From Sporosarcina pasteurii (GTDB lineage Bacteria > Bacillota > Bacilli > Bacillales_A > Planococcaceae): a stretch of 64,000 bases of DNA. This document shows, piece after piece, positions 26,960 through 56,806 of the stretch. Both the position numbers and the translations under genes were made by a program. The stretch spans positions 2,728,001 to 2,792,000 of the forward strand of contig NZ_CP160452.1 of NCBI RefSeq assembly GCF_041295575.1, read 5' to 3'. The notes under the pieces were generated by a model, which had not been told where the DNA came from, made no database searches, and saw nothing but the letters and a program-made list of their open reading frames with translations. Each line of letters starts with the position of its first letter. The stretch's first letter is position 1.

Positions 26960-28753
26960 TCAACCTTCTTCGGCTGTTAGTTCTAAAAATTCCTCAACGT
27001 CTTTCACACAAAGTGCGACACCTTTTGCCCAAAAAGCTTCTTGTGTGATATCTTCACCGAGGTGCTTCATCGCAAGTTCTTCTACAGTCATCACTGCCGT
27101 GTCGCGCAACAACGCCATATACTTCTCTTCGAAACCTGCGCCTTCTTCAAGTGCTTTTGCATAAATACTTAACGAGAATAAATACCCAAACGTATATGGA
27201 AAATTGTAAAACGGAACTTGAGTAATGTAGAAATGTAATTTTGAAGCCCAGAAATGCGGATGTGTTGTATCAAGCGCATCACCATATGCTTCTCGTTGTG
27301 CTTCTTCCATTAGCGTGTTCAAACGAGCGGCTGAAACAATCCCTTTACGACGTTCTTCATAAAATCTCGTCTCAAACAAAAATCTTGCATGAATGTTCAT
27401 GAAGAATGCAACACTACGTTGAATTTTATCTTCGAGTAATGCAATCTTTTCTTCTTTCGTTTCTGCTGCTTTCACGGCCGCATCTGCAACAATCATCTCT
27501 GCAAAAGTCGATGCAGTCTCTGCAACGCCCATCGCATAGCCTCTATTTAACCAGTGTACAGGACGAAGCACATAGGAGTGGAAAGCATGTCCAAGCTCAT
27601 GAGCGAGTGTCGCAACGTTGGACATCGAGCCACTATACGTCATGAAGATTCGGGATTGTTCTGACATCGGCATCCCTGTACAGAAACCGCCTGGTCGCTT
27701 ATTCGCACGGTCTTCTGCCTCAATCCAACTATCCTCGAATGCCATTCTTGAAAATGATTCAAGTTCAGATCCGAACTCTCCAAAATGCTTAAGGATGAAT
27801 TCTGCTCCTTCTTGGTAAGGCATCGTTTTCGTTGATTCTGTAACCGGTGCCTCTAAGTCATACCAATTCATCTTTTCCGTTCCGAGCATTTCTGCTTTCA
27901 CGTTCAAATAATTTACGAATGGTTCTTTATTCGCTCCGATTGCTCCCCACATCGCATTTAATGTGTCTTCACTCATTCGGTTACGAAGAAGTGGTTCTTT
28001 TAATACGGAATTCCACCCACGTTTTTCATAAACTGCTAATCTGAAGCCAGCTAGGTGGTTAAGTGTTGTAGCAAAGAACTCTTCCTTGTCTTTCCAGGCA
28101 ACTTCTAATTTTTCAAAGGACTCTTTTCGAACAGCTGCGTGTTGACTTGAACTTAAGTTAGACGCTTGACCAACAGATAACTCTTTTACTTCACCATCAA
28201 CTTCAACTTTTACTTTAATATCCGCAACAAGTTGGTCATAAAGTTGTCCCCAACTATGATAACCATCTACACTTAATGCTGTGATTAGACTTTCTTCTTC
28301 TTCAGATAGTTTTATCGCTACCTCTTCCCGCCATTCATTTAACACGAAACTGAATTCGTTCAATTCCGTGGATTCCATTAATTTTGCCCATACATCACTG
28401 TCTACCTTGGCGAGTTTTTGTTGAAATTTCAACATAACCGTCTGAAATTCTGCACCGAGTGCCCCTACTTCACCTTGTAAAAGCAATGCCTTTTTATCCG
28501 TAGTGTCGGCAGCTAAATAACATCCAATGACTGCTCCCGCTTGCCTTAAATTCACGGCTGTGTCTTTTACCAATTCAATTAAGCGAAAGACTTCTTGCGA
28601 TTCATTCACTGATGTTGGTATATCAAATATATCAATATTTTCTTTTACCACATTTATTTTTTCTTTCACATTATCAAGATGTGTACGTAATTCGGGTGAA
28701 CTACTCCCACCTTTAAAGAAAACATCTAAATCCCAAACTTCCGAATACTTCAT
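26960..28753 (-). CDS. pepF: M3 family oligoendopeptidase (PepF type)
   Basis: A 597-residue zinc metallopeptidase of the M3B family. The HExxH motif is in LAHELGHAFHS near residue 385 with the downstream ligand glutamate in GVAETASTFAEMIV. It hydrolyses oligopeptides in the cytoplasm. Start ATG follows GAGGGGGAAAAATACAG. First gene of the pepF-acetyltransferase pair. Confidence 0.9.
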   Translation of the reverse strand: MKYSEVWDLDVFFKGGSSSPELRTHLDNVKEKINVVKENIDIFDIPTSVNESQEVFRLIELVKDTAVNLRQAGAVIGCYLAADTTDKKALLLQGEVGALGAEFQTVMLKFQQKLAKVDSDVWAKLMESTELNEFSFVLNEWREEVAIKLSEEEESLITALSVDGYHSWGQLYDQLVADIKVKVEVDGEVKELSVGQASNLSSSQHAAVRKESFEKLEVAWKDKEEFFATTLNHLAGFRLAVYEKRGWNSVLKEPLLRNRMSEDTLNAMWGAIGANKEPFVNYLNVKAEMLGTEKMNWYDLEAPVTESTKTMPYQEGAEFILKHFGEFGSELESFSRMAFEDSWIEAEDRANKRPGGFCTGMPMSEQSRIFMTYSGSMSNVATLAHELGHAFHSYVLRPVHWLNRGYAMGVAETASTFAEMIVADAAVKAAETKEEKIALLEDKIQRSVAFFMNIHARFLFETRFYEERRKGIVSAARLNTLMEEAQREAYGDALDTTHPHFWASKLHFYITQVPFYNFPYTFGYLFSLSIYAKALEEGAGFEEKYMALLRDTAVMTVEELAMKHLGEDITQEAFWAKGVALCVKDVEEFLELTAEEG

Positions 28754-28933
28754 CTGTATTTTTCCCCCTCTTACGTTTCCAATTTTCTAAATAGATACTT
28801 CTATTGTAGCATGTAATTTCGATATGCGAACCAATACATTTTGCTACGAACTGATATTTGTGACGAAAACTTCACACTTTTTACCGTAAAACACAATTTT
28901 CCTCTGTATACTTATAGATAGGAGGATTTTAAC

Positions 28934-29671
28934 ATGATTCGATTTTTTAGTATGGCAATAATTCTTTTCGTTAGTCTTATCGTTATTGGCACTGCAGAAA
29001 TCGTTCCTTTTAATGGAATCACCGCTATTGAAATTATGAATAGACTCCCTGTGCTGTTAACACCTGCAAGCTATGTGTTTCTGATTTGGATCCTAATATA
29101 TATTTTCTTAGTGACTTGGCTCCTCGGATTCTGGCGACATCAACGACGACAATCAGGAAAAGTGTTCAACATTAGATTTTTGTTTTTCATCATAAGCTTA
29201 CTATTCAATATGCTTTTGATTCTCCTATGGCATTATGAGTTCTTTATGTGGGCAATTATTATAATGGTTGGATTGTTACTTACCATCTCTGCCATTTATT
29301 TTTCATATCCCAAAACCGAAAACCTCATTTTGTTTCGCGTACCAATTTCAATATTTTTCGGTTGGAGTGTATTTTCTTTTATTATTTTAATTAATTATAC
29401 GTTGGTATTTGTCGAATGGAGTGGCTTTGGAATTAGCCAATCATTATGGGCCGTCATCTTTTTAACACTAGCAACCGCAATCGCCCTTCATTTTTTATAT
29501 CATTATGAAGATAAGGCATTTAATATTGTTTTTATGTGGGGATTTATTGGAATCGCAGTAAAAAATGGATTCGATTCTCTATTCGTGACTACTGCTGCAT
29601 TGTTCTTAACCGCCGTCATTGGTGCATGCTTTTATCTATTCAAAAATAAACAGGTATCTGCCAGCGAATGA
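28934..29671 (+). CDS. TspO/MBR-like membrane protein
   Basis: A 245-residue protein with about seven hydrophobic helices. The segment TPASYVFLIWILIYIFL resembles the conserved PxxxFxxxW...Y helix of TspO/tryptophan-rich sensory proteins, and tryptophans recur in the loops. Longer than the classical 160-residue TspO; Bacillales carry such long forms. RBS TAGGAGGATTTTAAC. Function by family only (tetrapyrrole or stress related). Confidence 0.55.
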   Translation: MIRFFSMAIILFVSLIVIGTAEIVPFNGITAIEIMNRLPVLLTPASYVFLIWILIYIFLVTWLLGFWRHQRRQSGKVFNIRFLFFIISLLFNMLLILLWHYEFFMWAIIIMVGLLLTISAIYFSYPKTENLILFRVPISIFFGWSVFSFIILINYTLVFVEWSGFGISQSLWAVIFLTLATAIALHFLYHYEDKAFNIVFMWGFIGIAVKNGFDSLFVTTAALFLTAVIGACFYLFKNKQVSASE

Positions 29672-49377: not shown

Positions 49378-52300
49378 TCAATCGACTTTGACTTTGGTCT
49401 TCAATCCTACCTTCTTCATCTCTAACCCTCTGATTACACTCTTCAATTGTGCTGGATCGTGTGAGACAATAAAAGCTTTTCGAAACTGCTCATAATATTC
49501 ATTTTCATGTGCTTTAGGTGATAGAATGATCAACTTCCGCGCTAATTTCTCTTCATATAGCTCAAATACTTTCGCTTTACGCGTATCGTCTAATGCACTG
49601 TCAAACTCATCTAGTACGATAAAACCTGCTTGATTTTCAAGGTTTTGCAGGAGCGATAACGCAAATAACAACGAGCTTAAGGATTCTTCTCCGCCTGAAA
49701 CACCTTTTCCAACTCGGCCTCCCCGAGCTTTCAAACTTACATCTACTAGCTTTCCACGATGTCCTTCTTTTCTTACGTGGATAAACAATTTAAATATCGG
49801 ACGTCCTTGCTTGTCCATCAGCTTTTCATATTTTATTTGTCCTTCAAACTGGAACATGCCCATATATTCCCCAAACAGCAAGTTTAACCTTTGAACTTGC
49901 ATCGCAATTGCCGTTTCCAAACGTTGTTCATTTAGCACGGCGCGTTCTTCATTTTCTTCTAATAAGTTTTTGGCGGATTGTAATTCATCTTGTTTACGCG
50001 CAACTTCCGCTTCCAACGTGAAATAGTTTTCAACCGCATTCGGATCGATATTCTTTTCATTTAGCGCATTATGAAATTCAACCTTTGCTTGGTTTTGTCG
50101 ATGTTGTAAGTCGAATTTAGAGTCAGTGCTCTCCTCATCAGCGATTGCGCGATCGACCAAATCAGGAATTAATAAACGTAACTCGTCTAATTCCGTTTTA
50201 TAACCCATTCCTATGTTCGATATTGCAATCCGCTCGTTTTCTTTTTCGTTAATTTGTTCAGTAATCTGACCTTTGACTCTTTCTGCTTGGTCCAATTTAT
50301 CCCCCAAACTTTCGATATCCCGCTGATTTTCTCGTGATTTTCCATGGATGTCATCCAATTGATCTTGAATTGAATTCTCGGTCCGCTTTAACGAAGAGAT
50401 TTCCTGCCTTATCGTTTTACTTTCCTGTTCTAAGCGTTGCAAACGGTCAATTTTGTCCGCTTGTTGCCCGAATTGTTCATAAACCGATAAGTCTGCTTCA
50501 CGAGCTTTTATTTCTTCTCTCTCTTCATACGCTTGTTTCCAAACGTCTTGCGCTTCTTTCTCGAACTCCCTTTTACTGTGCTGCAGCAACGTTAAATGCT
50601 CCGTTAATTTCTCTCGTTGCTCAAGACGATATTGTTGCTCCACTCTTTTGGATAATAATGCTTCAGCTTCCTCCACTTTATGAACGTCTGCATTCCATAA
50701 GCGATATTTTTCATTATCCTCGTCGATTTTTTCAGTCAGTACATCGATTTCCTTCGTAATTTCTTCTATCTTACGCTCAAGTACACTTCTTCTTTCATCT
50801 AAAGCTTTTTCACTTAAAATATACGTATCTCTTTCCTCTGGTCCGCGACTCCCACGCGAATCAATTAACAAACCATTTTGTAGAAAAGGTGCTTCTTCTG
50901 AAAAAAATTGCTCAATCCACCAAAGAACACGGGCTGCATCATTTTGCTCATTGGTAGACAACCCCTCTTGCATCGTTAGCCCATATTGCGGCAACGATGT
51001 AATCGAACGTGTAGGAATTAATTTCTTAAGTGAGACGTGGTATAAATCATTGAAAGGCTGGCAAGTAGATGCATCGTAAAATATTGAATGTTTTATTGCA
51101 TCATATAAACGCTCTTTCTCTATCGACTGATTGTCCATCAATTTTACAAAATGACGTAATGTGTACGCTTGAATACCTTGTCGTTTCAAATAGCGTATCG
51201 CTGCGTGCTGTCTAGGTGATTCGATTTGATTTCGCTGCAACATCATGAATTCTTCCTTGTATTTCTGAAGGCGTCCTCTTAACTCGTCTCGTAGTGCTCT
51301 ATCGGTTTGTAAGGAAGCTTCCAATTCCGCAATGCGGTTATTTAACTGATAACTGGAAGTATATCGTCCAAGAAGTTCGATAGCGCCTTCACTTTGCTTT
51401 TCCCATTGGTCGATGTCCGCTTGGATATTCGATTGCTCCTGTCGAGTAGTTTCCATTTCTTCTTCACAACGCTGAATACGGTCTCGGATTGTTTGCTCAT
51501 TTTCTTGTAAAATGACGACTTGTTTTGTCGCGGTTTCCCATCTTTGCTTTGTTTCCTGTTCAGAAAATGGCAATTTGACATACGCCTCTTGTAGTTCACT
51601 TAATACTTCCTGTAGTGCATCTACTTCCAAAACAACTTCAGCTAACTTATAATCTTTCTTAGTTAAGTCGTTTGCCACTGTAACAAGTTCTTCTTCAGAC
51701 GTTTTTTGGTTCTGCAATAAAACCACTTGCTTTTCTTTCGCTGCTTCCAACTGATTAACAATCAGTTTTTCCTTTTCGGCCAGATCCTCTAATTCAATGC
51801 GACGTTCCTCAATATATCTTTCCATTTCTAAACGTGCCTTTTCTGCGTTTCGCTTCAATTCATTCGTCGTCAATGCATACTGATAGCCATTTTCTTCAAG
51901 CCGACGTTTATTATCTTCAAAACGTTCTTTATGGTCCCTTGCTACATTCAGTTCAAATTCATACCCTTTTTGTTTAATTGTCGCATCGTTAAAAGCTTCT
52001 CTCGCGTCTTTAACGACTTCTAAACTTGTTTCCCAATCTTTTTGAATGCTGTCAATCCGGTGCATTTCACTAAAAATGCGAAATCGCTCTTCTGGAGCCA
52101 TGACCGAGAACTGATTGACTTCTTGCTGATACCAGATTAAATAATACAAATCTGGATGGATTTTATATTTATACTGTAGTTCTCTCCGGTACGCGGTGAA
52201 GTTATTTTTATTCGCATCTCCTGAACGATACGTTTGGCGCAATGCCAGTTCCTCTACTTCATCGCCATCGTAAATTTCATATTGTAATTTTATCGGTTGC

Positions 52301-52608
52301 TTCGGGAGTTGTTCACAAATTAATCGAAATTCAATATAAAGTGGCGCATCGATACGGGATGCACCTTCATTTTTATATAAAAAGTGAATGGTTGCCCGCC
52401 AAGTTTCATCTTCCGGTAGATTTTGAGATTTCAATCCTTCAATATCGACCTTACTTGAGCGTAATACAGCGCCCATACAAAATGAAATAGTAGATTTTCC
52501 AGCACCATTCGGACCGGTAATTAAAATATGCTCATCTGCATTTCCTAAATTCATCTCTGTTGGCCCGTAGTCTCGAATGCCTGAAATCCGTAAGCGTTTA
52601 GGGATCAA
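49378..52608 (-). CDS. jetC: Wadjet SMC-like ATPase JetC (MksB-like)
   Basis: A 1076-residue SMC-type ATPase. Walker A GPNGAGKST near residue 34, two long coiled-coil arms (about 195-430 and 590-850) round a globular hinge (about 440-560), then the ABC signature VSGGEESLSSLLFAL near 965 and Walker B FIVLDEFDSALD near 998. With JetA and JetB it forms a loop-extruding motor that senses small circular DNA. TTG start set by GGGAGGGG; it overlaps jetB by four bases (TTGA). Confidence 0.9.
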   Translation of the reverse strand: MIPKRLRISGIRDYGPTEMNLGNADEHILITGPNGAGKSTISFCMGAVLRSSKVDIEGLKSQNLPEDETWRATIHFLYKNEGASRIDAPLYIEFRLICEQLPKQPIKLQYEIYDGDEVEELALRQTYRSGDANKNNFTAYRRELQYKYKIHPDLYYLIWYQQEVNQFSVMAPEERFRIFSEMHRIDSIQKDWETSLEVVKDAREAFNDATIKQKGYEFELNVARDHKERFEDNKRRLEENGYQYALTTNELKRNAEKARLEMERYIEERRIELEDLAEKEKLIVNQLEAAKEKQVVLLQNQKTSEEELVTVANDLTKKDYKLAEVVLEVDALQEVLSELQEAYVKLPFSEQETKQRWETATKQVVILQENEQTIRDRIQRCEEEMETTRQEQSNIQADIDQWEKQSEGAIELLGRYTSSYQLNNRIAELEASLQTDRALRDELRGRLQKYKEEFMMLQRNQIESPRQHAAIRYLKRQGIQAYTLRHFVKLMDNQSIEKERLYDAIKHSIFYDASTCQPFNDLYHVSLKKLIPTRSITSLPQYGLTMQEGLSTNEQNDAARVLWWIEQFFSEEAPFLQNGLLIDSRGSRGPEERDTYILSEKALDERRSVLERKIEEITKEIDVLTEKIDEDNEKYRLWNADVHKVEEAEALLSKRVEQQYRLEQREKLTEHLTLLQHSKREFEKEAQDVWKQAYEEREEIKAREADLSVYEQFGQQADKIDRLQRLEQESKTIRQEISSLKRTENSIQDQLDDIHGKSRENQRDIESLGDKLDQAERVKGQITEQINEKENERIAISNIGMGYKTELDELRLLIPDLVDRAIADEESTDSKFDLQHRQNQAKVEFHNALNEKNIDPNAVENYFTLEAEVARKQDELQSAKNLLEENEERAVLNEQRLETAIAMQVQRLNLLFGEYMGMFQFEGQIKYEKLMDKQGRPIFKLFIHVRKEGHRGKLVDVSLKARGGRVGKGVSGGEESLSSLLFALSLLQNLENQAGFIVLDEFDSALDDTRKAKVFELYEEKLARKLIILSPKAHENEYYEQFRKAFIVSHDPAQLKSVIRGLEMKKVGLKTKVKVD

Positions 52609-53291
52609 ATTAACCCCTCCCGCTCATACAAATTGTACCGATTAAAAAACTTCATCACGTCTTCCTTTGATAATTGATTGGAATGGCTAAACTCCACCAT
52701 TCTGCGCAAAAACGAATCAGAAAACATGTGAACACCGATTGCTGTTAATCGATACGCATCTTCTTTATCCGATAACTGTTGATTTTCAAGGGCACCGATT
52801 TTCCTTAATGTATCGATTGCGAGTTGAATACGTCGACTGCCTTTCATGACTTCATGCCCGAACGCTTCCAGTAATTGAGTTAATAATGTGTATTCATGTT
52901 TTAACACCTCTTGCTGATAAAACATAAACAATAAGACAGCGAGTGCTTCTGAAGATAACGTATGGCGGGCAGAACGAGCAGGAACACGCAGCATGACAAC
53001 GACTTGGTCACGCCCTTCGTCATAAATGAGTCGATAATACCTACCGACCGCTTGATTGACTCGCGAGAGGAAAGAATGAAAATAATTATCTTCACGGGAA
53101 ACGCCTAGTAATTTTTCCACTTCTTTACGAGGCAATCCAAAATTATTCGCTCGAATGGTCGCACTGGAGGAAAATAAAATCGACATAAATGCTTGTTCTT
53201 CTCGTGTCGTGAGGACACTTCGTAACGTTTGTAAACGATTTAAGGACAAGTCATCATGTTCTTCTTCGTATGCTTGATTTTCTGTCGTCAT
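52605..53291 (-). CDS. jetB: Wadjet subunit JetB (MksE-like, DUF6063 type)
   Basis: About 228 residues, helical with winged-helix elements (VEKLLGVSREDNYFHSFLSRV; SEALAVLLFMFYQQEV; AIDTLRKIGALENQQ). Its size and place between jetA and jetC identify it as the KITE/MksE component. ATG at 53291 follows GGGAGTGGATTCAAG and overlaps the end of jetA by 38 bases. Assignment rests mainly on operon context and fold-like features. Confidence 0.82.
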   Translation of the reverse strand: MTTENQAYEEEHDDLSLNRLQTLRSVLTTREEQAFMSILFSSSATIRANNFGLPRKEVEKLLGVSREDNYFHSFLSRVNQAVGRYYRLIYDEGRDQVVVMLRVPARSARHTLSSEALAVLLFMFYQQEVLKHEYTLLTQLLEAFGHEVMKGSRRIQLAIDTLRKIGALENQQLSDKEDAYRLTAIGVHMFSDSFLRRMVEFSHSNQLSKEDVMKFFNRYNLYEREGLI

Positions 53292-54636
53292 CTTGAATCC
53301 ACTCCCATTCTTTATCAAATTCTTTTACATGTTGCTTCGGCTGTACTTGGACTTTTTTATTCGCTTCAAGCGCTGCGACGCCTAATAATTGGCGAATGGC
53401 ATCGCTCCATGACACCGAACTCGTTTCAATAATTGTTTCTTCTATATCCGCTTCCTGTTTTTGCTCTAAATATCGTTCAATCTTTTCTGTGTCAATGCTC
53501 GCTTTCGTTAACAACCAACTTGCTTCATCCATAAGATTTTCTAACGAATCCGCCTCGATATTTTCCTGGTAGAATGTTGGTTGAATCACCTCTTCAATAT
53601 CCGCAACGGCTGGCTCATAGTTTTCTAGAAAATCAATCCCTTTTTCAATTTCTGTATACGATAACGGACTCGCATATTTTACGGGGATCCAAATGCCATC
53701 CAATTGTTCTCCGTCATATTGTCCTTGGTCCATAAAACTGAATAACTGGTGGGCGTTAGGGATTTCTGATTCTGGAGGCGGATTAAACATTTTCGTAATA
53801 AATAAACGTACCTTTTCCGGTGAAATGGCTGTTTGAAGTGGCGTTTGCTGCACGTTCATAAATTGGAGGTATTTATTAATCATCCCAATCGAAAGGCTTG
53901 TCCCTTCATTTAGCGCGCCTGTTCCAATTTGCATTAAATTACTTAAAACAAGACTATCTTCAATCGTTTCAAATTGCTTTAGCCGCTCATCTAATTTCTC
54001 TGCTAAATCTTCCATTAACGTATGAATTAACTCTAGCTGTGGAAATGCATTCCGGTCTGCCAGCAATTCTAGTTCCCGCTCTCTTAACTTTTCTATTGCG
54101 TCTTTTACATTCCGAATCATACTCGCAATTCGATTTCCACCAGAAATCCCTTTATCATCATACGCTTCACTAATTTCAGCATCTCGTCTCGCCTGAAATA
54201 ATGAGCGCCCGATTTCATCTTCCAAATAATAAGCGAGGGAATCATTTGCCAGTCTTGTTAATGCATCCATCATCCGCTTTCCGACACTCATCATTTTAAT
54301 TTGATGCGTTTGCTTACTTACCCAATTATTTTTCACTAAGATTTTTACAATTTGCGTTATACGCTCTTTCGTTGGCGGTTCTACGTCTTCATAACGCGCT
54401 ACATAACGATAATAAAGCATTTCAGCATCATCAATTTGTTCGGTCAACCCAAATGATTCTTCATGAATCAACTCAATAATTCGTAGAAAACGGAGCATTT
54501 CCAGTGGCGAATCGAATACTGCTTCTGATGAGAGATCCTTCATAACGCCGGCTAAAGAAATAATGTCACGCATTGCCCTCGTCAACTCGGGCTGATGCTG
54601 GGCAGTTTTAAATATGGAAACTACAGACTTATCCAT
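53254..54636 (-). CDS. jetA: Wadjet subunit JetA (MksF-like kleisin)
   Basis: About 460 residues, mostly helical, with winged-helix-like ends and a central coiled coil (VKDAIEKLRERELELLADR). As the kleisin it bridges the two JetC heads. ATG at 54636 (MDKSVV) or the in-frame TTG at 54645 is the start; AGAGG lies upstream of the TTG and GGAGG just before the ATG. It overlaps jetD by 16 bases. The sequence is most like the type II JetA family. Confidence 0.85.
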   Translation of the reverse strand: MDKSVVSIFKTAQHQPELTRAMRDIISLAGVMKDLSSEAVFDSPLEMLRFLRIIELIHEESFGLTEQIDDAEMLYYRYVARYEDVEPPTKERITQIVKILVKNNWVSKQTHQIKMMSVGKRMMDALTRLANDSLAYYLEDEIGRSLFQARRDAEISEAYDDKGISGGNRIASMIRNVKDAIEKLRERELELLADRNAFPQLELIHTLMEDLAEKLDERLKQFETIEDSLVLSNLMQIGTGALNEGTSLSIGMINKYLQFMNVQQTPLQTAISPEKVRLFITKMFNPPPESEIPNAHQLFSFMDQGQYDGEQLDGIWIPVKYASPLSYTEIEKGIDFLENYEPAVADIEEVIQPTFYQENIEADSLENLMDEASWLLTKASIDTEKIERYLEQKQEADIEETIIETSSVSWSDAIRQLLGVAALEANKKVQVQPKQHVKEFDKEWEWIQDDDRKSSIRRRT

Positions 54637-55514
54637 TTCCTCCAATGTTCCTCTCCCCCTAACGTCATTTCCTGTTCTGCATGCGGCACTGTCTGTGACC
54701 AATCAACAAACGCTTCATAGGTCGCAAAAAGATTTCCCTCATTTCCGATAATTCTAAAAGGAAGCTTGCCAATTAAATTGACCAAGTCTCTAGCAATCAC
54801 ATCTCCGGCCTTATCATAATCAACCCAAATCAGTACCTTTTGAATGGATCCGTTACCGCAAAGTTGCTGAATCATTTTTCGGTGTGCTCCTTTAATCTGG
54901 CCATCTACACCTATAATGATAGACTGAGTATCTTCTAAAAATGGAACCTCCATTGCCATTCGAGTTAACACCGCACGGTTTTCAACCAACCATAAAATGC
55001 GCGCGTCCGTGCGAAAATCTTCCTCGGCAACCGCAATATCTGTTGTCGCATGCAAAGTTCCAATACGATACTTTGAATAATTCCCCAATACAGGACCTGT
55101 GAAATAAATAGGAACAATTGACCCAACACTGATAATCCCTAACGTCTGTATGGGCGCCCCAAGCCATTTTTCTAATCGATGAATAAAAACATCACGATAA
55201 CGATCGAACTCTTTAGATCCGCCGATTTTTTGATAATACGTTGCGCCAATTTCCTTGTATTCCATACGTTCTTGTCGTCTTCTCAGTCGCAAATAAGCCA
55301 TTAAGAAGTGAGTGAACTTCCGAACTCTCTCTTTCCCCCACGATTCACTATCGCTCTTTTCAGTCGTAAACTGCTTAAGCTGTTGGACAAAATGCATTGG
55401 TAAATCTTTTTCTGACTTTCTAATTTCCGCTTGCAACATTTCCTTCAAGCTGTCATCCGCTCTCAATTGTTCTTCTGCTTTTAATTTTTGATAGATAAAC
55501 AATCCGGGACCCAT
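54621..55514 (-). CDS. jetD: Wadjet nuclease subunit JetD (Toprim, MksG-like)
   Basis: A 297-residue protein (from the ATG). The C-terminal Toprim-like domain has the glutamate in LVENRAVL (E178) and the DxD pair in IWVDYDKAGD (D232, D234); the N-terminal half is helical. This subunit cuts the plasmid once JetABC has extruded it. The ATG has no RBS; the frame is open 19 codons further, to 55571, with CTG at 55532 after GGAAGA and ATT at 55571 overlapping the upstream stop. The true start is probably one of these. Confidence 0.85.
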   Translation of the reverse strand: MGPGLFIYQKLKAEEQLRADDSLKEMLQAEIRKSEKDLPMHFVQQLKQFTTEKSDSESWGKERVRKFTHFLMAYLRLRRRQERMEYKEIGATYYQKIGGSKEFDRYRDVFIHRLEKWLGAPIQTLGIISVGSIVPIYFTGPVLGNYSKYRIGTLHATTDIAVAEEDFRTDARILWLVENRAVLTRMAMEVPFLEDTQSIIIGVDGQIKGAHRKMIQQLCGNGSIQKVLIWVDYDKAGDVIARDLVNLIGKLPFRIIGNEGNLFATYEAFVDWSQTVPHAEQEMTLGGEEHWRKWISL

Positions 55515-55570
55515 ACGGTACTGTGTAGACAGTGGTGTTCTTCCATCTTTCTTAAACCGTACTTCTTGAA

Positions 55571-55831
55571 TTAACCAGCCTTCTCAAGCGCTTCTTCCTT
55601 CTTACTTTCAGATAAAGATAGTGATTCCCGACGCGAGTTCGGTTTCAAGTTCATTATAGTCACTTCATCATTTGGTGTGATCTCATACGCATTAGCAGCG
55701 AAAACATTGCCCAACGTTTTAAAAGTACGTACTGTCCACTTTTGAATTTCCCACTCATCATCACTGATTTGTACGACGGACTCTCCTGCTTTACATATGT
55801 ACATTTCTAAAAACGCTTTCGTCGTTAGCAT
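55571..55831 (-). CDS. unknown 86-residue protein, first gene of the Wadjet operon
   Basis: A small soluble protein (start MLTTKAFLEM after GGGGTGATTGTC). Central strands (ESVVQISDDEWEIQKWTV, NAYEITPNDEVTIMNL) suggest a beta fold, and the tail is charged (SESKKEEALEKAG). Its TAA stop abuts the open jetD frame, and a TATAAT (55874-55869) lies 38 bases upstream, so it heads the operon. It is not one of the four canonical Jet proteins and was not recognised. Confidence 0.7.
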   Translation of the reverse strand: MLTTKAFLEMYICKAGESVVQISDDEWEIQKWTVRTFKTLGNVFAANAYEITPNDEVTIMNLKPNSRRESLSLSESKKEEALEKAG

Positions 55832-56009
55832 GACAATCACCCCAGTTCTTTTCTACTCTCTTTCTTTCATTATAAAGGATATATGCTTCAGGTAACAGTC
55901 ACCCAAGCATTTCAGATTGAGCCATGTTTTTGTGGGTACTATTTTAAGCAGAGGCTTTCTCTTCTTGAATAGTTAGGTATTCCATTTTTAATAATGTCAA
56001 ATAAACTAT

Positions 56010-56137
56010 GTTGATTTCCGTTTCGAGCGGACGCGTTCCGTGGGGCGGGAGGTGAGCCTCCTCGTCGCTTCGCTCCTGCGGGGTCTCACCTGTCCCGCTA
56101 AATCCCACTGGAGTCGCCGCTCTACACTCCAATCAAC
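56010..56137 (-). repeat. 128-nt dispersed palindromic element
   Basis: GTTGATT at 56010 and AATCAAC at 56137 close a GC-rich element with inner stems (GGAGGTGAGCC / GGGTCTCACCTG; CGTCGCTTCGCTC). Read on the reverse strand it begins GATTGGAGTGTAGAGCGGCG. It is a relative of the 56535-56806 element, inverted. 55841-56009 holds only the jet promoter region. Confidence 0.75.
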
Positions 56138-56320
56138 AGAAATTCCTTAGATATAATTTTTATAAACGCATCTAACACACGAATCTTGTTTATAAATACT
56201 TCGTTAACTCAATATCCCTGGTGTCCTTTTAATTCTTGATAAACAGGCTTTCAAGTTGTCTAAAATCTGTCGACTTTAATGAAAAGAACAGGTCTCCTTT
56301 GTCCTTGAATTAAGAGCAGG

Positions 56321-56534: not shown

Positions 56535-56806
56535 CAATTAATCGGAGTGGAAATCGGCGACTCCAGCGGGAACAGCTGGGGAAAAGGTAGTTCACTTTTC
56601 CCTGGCCGAAGACCCTAGACTGAGCGAAGCGAAAGCCGTTACGAAGAACGGCTTTTGCGACCAAAAAGCGAAGCGTTTTAGAGCACGGATATAATACTCT
56701 GTATAATTTTTTAAAGAACAAAAAATTATACAAATCGCACTCTTCGTTGTGCGATTGGCTGAGGCCGTGCCCGCGGAAAGCGTCCGATTGGAACGGAGAT
56801 TAATTG
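56535..56806 (+). repeat. 272-nt expanded member of the same element family
   Basis: Ends CAATTAATCGGAG and CGGAGATTAATTG mirror each other. The outer parts (GGCGACTCCAGCGGGAACAG; GCCGTGCCCGCGGAAAGCG) match the 56010 element, but the middle is about 150 bases longer and packed with hairpins: AAAGCCGTTACGAAGAACGGCTTT, a 13-bp AT-rich stem from 56699 to 56730, and CGCACTCTTCGTTGTGCG. The remainder of 56438-56870 has no gene. Confidence 0.7.

What the first reader, a model, noticed from the sequence alone, without database searches (positions are those of the whole stretch)
49378..55831. Five-gene Wadjet (JetDABC) plasmid-defence operon with an extra leading gene
JetC has SMC motifs, JetD Toprim residues E178 and D232/D234, and the four jet genes overlap or couple. 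The order D-A-B-C differs from the textbook A-B-C-D of type I, and a fifth unknown gene leads the operon. It is the only clear defence system in the window.
Basis: partly seen in the sequence, partly recalled or inferred. Interest (0 to 1): 0.75.

Follow-up and report, generated by a model that had tools for sequence, protein, structure and literature searches.

The report
Plasmid-defence operon with broken nuclease gene
This is a known kind of bacterial anti-plasmid system (type III Wadjet) whose supposed extra fifth gene is really the front end of its DNA-cutting gene, split by a frameshift, and several related bacteria have also lost that cutter while keeping the rest.

Summary
The operon at 49378-55840 (minus strand) is real and is a type III Wadjet locus: JetC3, JetB3, JetA3 and JetD3 profiles match at 1273, 364, 730 and 386 bits. 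D-A-B-C is the order in every related type III locus where jetD is seen, so it is not unusual.

The "fifth leading gene" (55571-55840) is not a gene. It matches JetD3 positions 5-95, and the next frame continues at 96. A net one-base frameshift splits jetD; all 9 congeneric relatives with a match, including an 85%-identical sister, have one open frame. The break falls in the conserved GWxIxExRF motif of a predicted folded domain, with no slippery site or Shine-Dalgarno sequence to rescue it.

Beyond the window: of 26 type III carriers among 261 genomes of the family, jetC is open in 26, jetB in 26 (one split between contigs), jetA near full length in 25, jetD in only 20. The six without it lie at four or more separate places on the JetABC tree. 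Most likely the window's anti-plasmid activity is lost while an intact SMC motor remains; a sequencing error is the main rival. Whether the motor keeps another role is open.

The parts
49378..52608 (-). jetC (type III), SMC-like ATPase, 1076 aa, intact
   Evidence: PADLOC JetC3 PDLC00580 1272.9 bits over 1-1065; Walker A, signature and Walker B intact
52605..53318 (-). jetB (type III), KITE-type subunit, 237 aa as listed, intact
   Evidence: PADLOC JetB3 PDLC00570 363.9 bits; KITE role from PMC10586767 passages
53254..54702 (-). jetA (type III), kleisin-type subunit, 482 aa as listed (true start probably further in; the profile begins at residue 20), intact
   Evidence: PADLOC JetA3 PDLC00559 730.1 bits; kleisin role from PMC10586767 passages
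54621..55583 (-). jetD part 2: open frame with the rest of the N-terminal domain and the CAP-like and Toprim parts; it opens right after a stop at 55584-55586; its first common start codon is the ATG at 55514
   Evidence: JetD3 profile 96-436, 385.9 bits for 54621-55580; stops; topoisomerase VI A / MksG / JetD fold in the model of a relative
   Evidence: JetD3 profile 5-95, 24 bits, E 4.1e-6; continuous with the Toprim frame in G067
55571..55586 (-). frameshift site: overlap of the two jetD frames, net one-base difference from relatives
   Evidence: DNA alignment of 13 loci; stops of both frames, no slippery heptamer

Best explanation
A chromosomal type III Wadjet locus (order jetD-A-B-C) in a Sporosarcina-like genome. 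By analogy with type I systems, JetABC would load on DNA and extrude loops; on a small circular plasmid the motors would collide and switch on the JetD nuclease (inferred; nothing was assayed here). In this genome jetD carries a net one-base frameshift about 85 codons into the gene, inside the conserved GWxIxExRF motif of the N-terminal domain. Translation would give an 89-aa fragment and stop; the CAP-Toprim part could be made only by re-initiation at an ATG with no ribosome-binding site, and would then lack its N-terminal domain. The likely result is a sensor/motor without its nuclease, so no plasmid restriction. Shown: identity, order, frameshift in the sequence as held, intact JetABC frames. 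Inferred: loss of function.
For: Profile matches of all parts, the two jetD pieces abutting at profile positions 95/96. 9 of 9 congeneric relatives with a match have a single jetD frame of 406-441 aa with no stop, the window's is 320; a DNA alignment of 13 loci shows one base fewer in the window at the junction. jetD is a single ORF of at least 401 aa in 32 of 35 loci found by JetA; of the other three, two are cut by contig ends and one has no jetD. The break lies between a predicted helix (89-97) and strand (101-107), block pLDDT 95-97, within a conserved motif. No slippery heptamer, no Shine-Dalgarno-like triplet before ATG 55514. No second JetC3, and no JetD3, DUF2399 or JetD_C match elsewhere in this genome. 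Single-contig genome, 99.99% complete.
Against: The two fragments still look constrained against G067: dN/dS 0.173 for the Toprim frame; dN 0.117 and dS 0.455 (ratio 0.26) for 80 N-terminal codons, so the break is recent, an error, or the parts still matter. A sequencing or assembly error cannot be excluded: 6 of 300 sister genes tested are split in this genome, 2 of 296 in reverse. The absence of a homopolymer at the junction is weak evidence, because 70% of random 41-base stretches lack such a run too. The CAP-Toprim part with its catalytic residues is intact and might be made at a low level.
Confidence: 0.77

Rival explanations
1. Sequencing or assembly error: jetD is intact in the living strain and this is an ordinary functional type III Wadjet.
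For: A single base; constraint on both halves; a few other split genes in the genome (6 of 300 tested).
Against: Complete single-contig genome, 99.99% complete; no homopolymer within 20 bases of the junction, while 4 of the other 5 split genes have one (weak, since 30% of random stretches have one); jetA, jetB and jetC uninterrupted; five other carriers in the family also lack an intact jetD.
Confidence: 0.16
2. Recoding: a programmed -1 shift or coupled re-initiation makes a working two-part or fused JetD.
For: Overlapping frames 55571-55586, -1 geometry, constraint on both parts.
Against: No X_XXY_YYZ heptamer in frame in the 160 bases scanned, no Shine-Dalgarno-like triplet before ATG 55514; jetD is unsplit in the 32 loci where it is complete and in 9 of 9 congeneric relatives; the break is inside a predicted domain.
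Confidence: 0.05
3. A real five-gene Wadjet variant with an extra leading gene.
For: A small ORF does precede the Toprim ORF.
Against: The small ORF matches JetD3 itself and is fused to the rest in relatives.
Confidence: 0.01

Closest known systems
Wadjet type III (JetABCD, PADLOC JetA3/B3/C3/D3)
   Same: All four families at high score; order D-A-B-C as in the related loci
   Different: jetD interrupted by a frameshift in the window; intact in 20 of 26 family carriers
Wadjet type I / MksBEFG (B. cereus Q1, P. aeruginosa PA14, C. glutamicum)
   Same: Kleisin-KITE-SMC core plus a topoisomerase VI A-like Toprim nuclease; the JetD3 model aligns to MksG 8b7f (Z 11.9, rmsd 7.9, 192 residues) and JetD 7til (Z 10.1, rmsd 3.3, 140 residues)
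JetABC without JetD: MksBEF of P. aeruginosa and the incomplete Wadjet I of Stenotrophomonas maltophilia
   Same: SMC core kept, nuclease absent. The review PMC10586767 says MksBEF likely originated by loss of JetD (passages); PMC11680222 reports a conserved Wadjet I lacking jetD (passages)
   Different: The S. maltophilia case is type I; here the same kind of loss is seen in type III, at four or more separate places in one family

Membership tests
Wadjet type III | JetA, JetB, JetC of the type III families, adjacent | tested here: met
   730, 364, 1273 bits; overlapping genes
Wadjet type III | JetD of the type III family present in sequence | tested here: met
   JetD3 profile covered 5-95 and 96-436 by two frames
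Wadjet type III | JetD encoded as one intact frame (the working four-gene set) | tested here: not met
   Frameshift at 55571-55586; so filed as a type III locus by descent, not as a working Wadjet system
Wadjet type III | Gene order D-A-B-C | tested here: met
   Same order in the related loci where jetD is seen
Wadjet type III | ATPase and Toprim motifs | tested here: met
   JetC Walker A, signature, Walker B; JetD VENRAVL and WVDYDKAG
Wadjet type III | Restricts small circular plasmids | not testable with these tools
   Needs a transformation assay
Wadjet type I | Type I Jet profiles | tested here: not met
   Hits listed are type III, plus weak type II and unrelated ones
MukBEF / MksBEF | MukB/MukE/MukF sequence families | tested here: not met
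   No Muk family among the Pfam or NCBIfam matches up to E 1
Five-gene Wadjet | Conserved separate small gene before jetD | tested here: not met
   The sequence lies inside jetD in 9 of 9 congeneric relatives with a match

The most novel reading that the evidence does not exclude
Type III JetABC is repeatedly freed of its nuclease in this family and is then kept by selection as a nuclease-free SMC complex (chromosome handling, or plasmid silencing without cutting): living intermediates of the path proposed for MksBEF/MukBEF, with the window a very early stage and three species of genus g15 a later one.
Probability: 0.2. Interest if true: 0.65.

Novelty: new member of a known kind. Interest (0 to 1): 0.35.

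Why it matters
It turns a supposed new operon design into a defence system apparently caught losing its cutter, and it corrects an annotation trap in which a broken nuclease looks like an extra gene. The wider pattern, no intact jetD in 6 of 26 carriers with jetB and jetC open in all, gives related pairs (window and G067; G136 and G135) in which one can ask what a Wadjet SMC motor does without its nuclease. That bears on how chromosome-organising MksBEF/MukBEF could have come from a defence system.

Tried and rejected
Programmed frameshifting: no slippery heptamer in frame in the 160 bases scanned. A second jetD in trans: apart from the operon copy or remnants, JetD3, DUF2399 and JetD_C searches found none in G000, G212, G213, G136 or G057; G214 has a stand-alone JetD_C protein of 349 aa at 1.82 Mb, so a substitute there is not excluded. 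A single ancestral jetD loss in genus g15: attractive because the three species form one clade, but the G214 remnant is still 34% and 37% identical to the N-terminus of intact JetD of G094 and G118, within the 20-63% of the eight pairs of intact JetD N-termini compared, so separate, younger losses are not excluded. Homopolymer argument for a true mutation: the stretches scanned were of unequal length; with equal 41-base stretches 4 of the other 5 split genes have a run, jetD and one other have none, and 30% of random stretches have one, so I now give it little weight and moved a few points of confidence to the error rival. A whole-order survey gave the same 261 genomes as the family survey. 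A Fisher test used a rough outside count and is not used. Sequence search found no solved relative of type III JetD (one hit, E 0.15, taken as chance). The original Wadjet paper could not be read (not held). The N-terminal domain was aligned alone but not folded alone; the VIA rows mostly span residues 251-417 of the model, so nothing is claimed about the fold class of the N-terminal domain.
Full report
What is there. On the minus strand at 49378-55840 lie jetD, jetA, jetB and jetC in that order of transcription, overlapping or coupled. PADLOC profiles place all of them in the type III Wadjet families: JetC3 1272.9 bits over 1-1065, JetB3 363.9, JetA3 730.1, JetD3 350.6 for the listed ORF and 385.9 when the frame is read from 55580. 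Pfam and NCBIfam give only generic SMC/ABC ATPase matches for JetC, DUF2399 and weak Toprim for JetD, and nothing convincing for JetA and JetB. JetC keeps Walker A, signature and Walker B; JetD keeps VENRAVL and WVDYDKAG.

The fifth gene. ORF 55571-55840 (89 aa) matches JetD3 positions 5-95 (24 bits, E 4.1e-6) and the next frame takes up at position 96. In the nearest relative, G067, the same stretch is one 410-aa frame. One search covered 68 genomes of the genus, the window's own included: 10 match, G000 and 9 others. All 9 others have one open frame of 406-441 aa without stops; the window's is 320. A DNA alignment of 13 loci shows the window one base short at the junction. The two frames overlap only at 55571-55586. 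So jetD is split by a frameshift and the operon has four genes, not five.

Order. One search examined 46 loci: two of the window itself, 9 of other genomes of the genus and 35 from named genomes. Wherever jetD is seen it precedes A, A precedes B, and B precedes C where C lies within the locus. L043 shows no jetD; the 3- to 4-kb loci L002-L011 and L012 end before jetC. D-A-B-C is thus normal for type III. The types were defined by sequence similarity and operon organisation, according to a passage of PMC10586767.

How bad is the break. A model of an intact relative's JetD (L014, 417 aa, 32-row alignment, mean pLDDT 89.5) puts the junction between helix 89-97 and strand 101-107, next to a nearly invariant glycine at 99. 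Parts of residues 155-417 align to topoisomerase VI A (1d3y, Z 14.9, rmsd 5.1, 225 residues; four more entries Z 14.4-12.5), Spo11 (8uru, Z 12.3, rmsd 6.3, 210), MksG of C. glutamicum (8b7f, Z 11.9, rmsd 7.9, 192) and JetD of P. aeruginosa (7til, Z 10.1, rmsd 3.3, 140, residues 251-416). In Foldseek only one match passes E 0.001, topoisomerase VI A. The ATG that begins the downstream ORF corresponds to the nearly invariant methionine 121, so a re-initiated product would lack the N-terminal domain. There is no slippery heptamer in frame in the 160 bases scanned and no Shine-Dalgarno-like triplet just before that ATG.

Error or mutation. Of 345 ORFs in 400 kb of G067, 300 had at least 80% coverage in 424 kb of the window's genome; 6 of these 300 are split over frames, jetD among them; in reverse 2 of 296 of 374 ORFs. 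Some of the six may be start-site differences. Within 20 bases of the split, 4 of the other 5 have a homopolymer run (5 A/T or 4 G/C), jetD and one other have none, against 30% of random stretches with one (one search had used unequal stretches). This leans only slightly towards a true mutation. The genome is one contig, 99.99% complete. Reads were not available.

Selection (Nei-Gojobori counts on frames read from stop to stop, so a few upstream codons are included). Window against G067: dN/dS 0.060 (JetA), 0.028 (JetB), 0.139 (JetC), 0.173 (JetD Toprim frame); the N-terminal 80 codons have dN 0.117 and dS 0.455, ratio 0.26. JetD ratios in the eight intact pairs examined range from 0.125 to 0.362, so there is no sign of decay: the break is recent, an error, or not fully disabling.

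Beyond the window. Profile searches over 261 genomes of the family find 26 carriers of each of JetA3, JetB3 and JetC3, the same 26, the window's genome included. JetC3 has an open frame without stops in 26 of 26. JetB3 likewise in 26 of 26, one (G199) split between two contigs. JetA3 is covered nearly full length in 25 of 26; G057 (88% complete) has an internal in-frame deletion. JetD3 matches in 25 genomes, of which G040 and G197 are not JetA carriers; G040 holds decayed pieces of jetD and jetC, G197 has weak matches that I did not follow. Among the 26 carriers jetD is an open frame of 398-473 aa in 20; split in G000; reduced to a 77-aa frame in G136; to short remnants in G214; not found in G212, G213 and G057. 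Six JetA matches and five JetD matches in otherwise intact genomes are reported with one stop inside; their open frames are of normal length, so I read these as stops at the edge of the match.

On a tree of joined JetA, B and C (25 genomes; G199 left out because its jetB is split), the tips without intact jetD are G000 (sister G067 intact), G136 (sister G135 intact), G057 (lone long branch) and the clade G212/G213/G214 (support 1.0): at least four and at most six losses. If breaks hit the operon in proportion to gene length, jetD would take 18.6%; four of four has probability 0.0012, four of five (counting the G057 jetA deletion apart) 0.005. This is only indicative: carriers were recognised by JetA, B and C, so losses of those genes are under-counted, and one of the six may be a sequencing error. 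In the D-less clade dN/dS for G212-G214 is 0.137, 0.054, 0.136 for JetA, B, C; for G212-G213 and G213-G214 JetA 0.146 and 0.099, JetC 0.140 and 0.135, with synonymous sites near saturation (JetB not computable). The eight JetD-bearing pairs give JetA 0.048-0.111, JetB 0-0.055, JetC 0.068-0.206. So JetB and JetC are as constrained as with JetD, JetA perhaps slightly less. JetC ATPase motifs are kept in 26 of 26. But the G214 remnant is not much more diverged than intact genes of other genera, so much of this constraint may date from before the loss.

Outside the family. Whether any of these 23 belong to the family by GTDB was not checked. In an even sample of 299 genomes of the class (G000 and G067 among them), 8 match JetB3; the six others, one of them weak (G292, JetB and JetD on opposite strands) and one on a contig of the same length as L037 (G369), all have JetD3 in open frames of 445-517 aa.

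What is known. PMC10586767 (passages) describes JetABC as sensor and JetD as nuclease, all four needed to suppress plasmid transformation in B. subtilis, says MksBEF of P. [quoted passage not shown] PMC11680222 (passages) reports a conserved jetD-less Wadjet I in Stenotrophomonas maltophilia, judged probably inactive. PMC9252829 (passages) shows a frameshifted jetC in a Wadjet locus and warns that such pseudogenes are missed. [quoted passage not shown] My searches listed no paper that I recognised as describing jetD loss in type III; they cover open-licence papers only, I saw listings, and I read passages of only some.

Verdict. A type III Wadjet locus with a probably inactivated nuclease gene, misread as a five-gene variant. 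The recurrent lack of jetD with JetABC kept is the part worth following.

Noticed in passing
L115-L118 (G212, G213, G214, G136) and L043: Type III JetABC operons with long open jetA, jetB and jetC but no intact jetD; remnants remain in G214 and G136.
   Followed up: partly
L119 9554-10603 (G057): JetA with an internal in-frame deletion (about profile 149-268) beside open jetB and jetC and no jetD.
   Followed up: no
L182 1408-2457 (G214, chromosome about 1.82 Mb): Stand-alone 349-aa protein with a JetD_C domain (PF09983, 37 bits) away from the JetABC operon; could it substitute for the lost JetD?
   Followed up: no
L120 8410-9910 (G040): Decayed Wadjet locus: pieces of the jetD N-terminus and the jetC C-terminus remain, no jetA or jetB found.
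   Followed up: no
window 28674-29668: Another gene split over two frames against sister G067, next to T5 and C5 runs; mutation, start-site difference or sequencing error.
   Followed up: no
window 56108-56119 and 56555-56566: Intergenic repeat upstream of the operon: CTGGAGTCGCCG twice in opposite orientations (0.05 expected by chance); DNA at 56003-56143 also matches G067 at a place that corresponds to the right end of the window, not to the operon.
   Followed up: no
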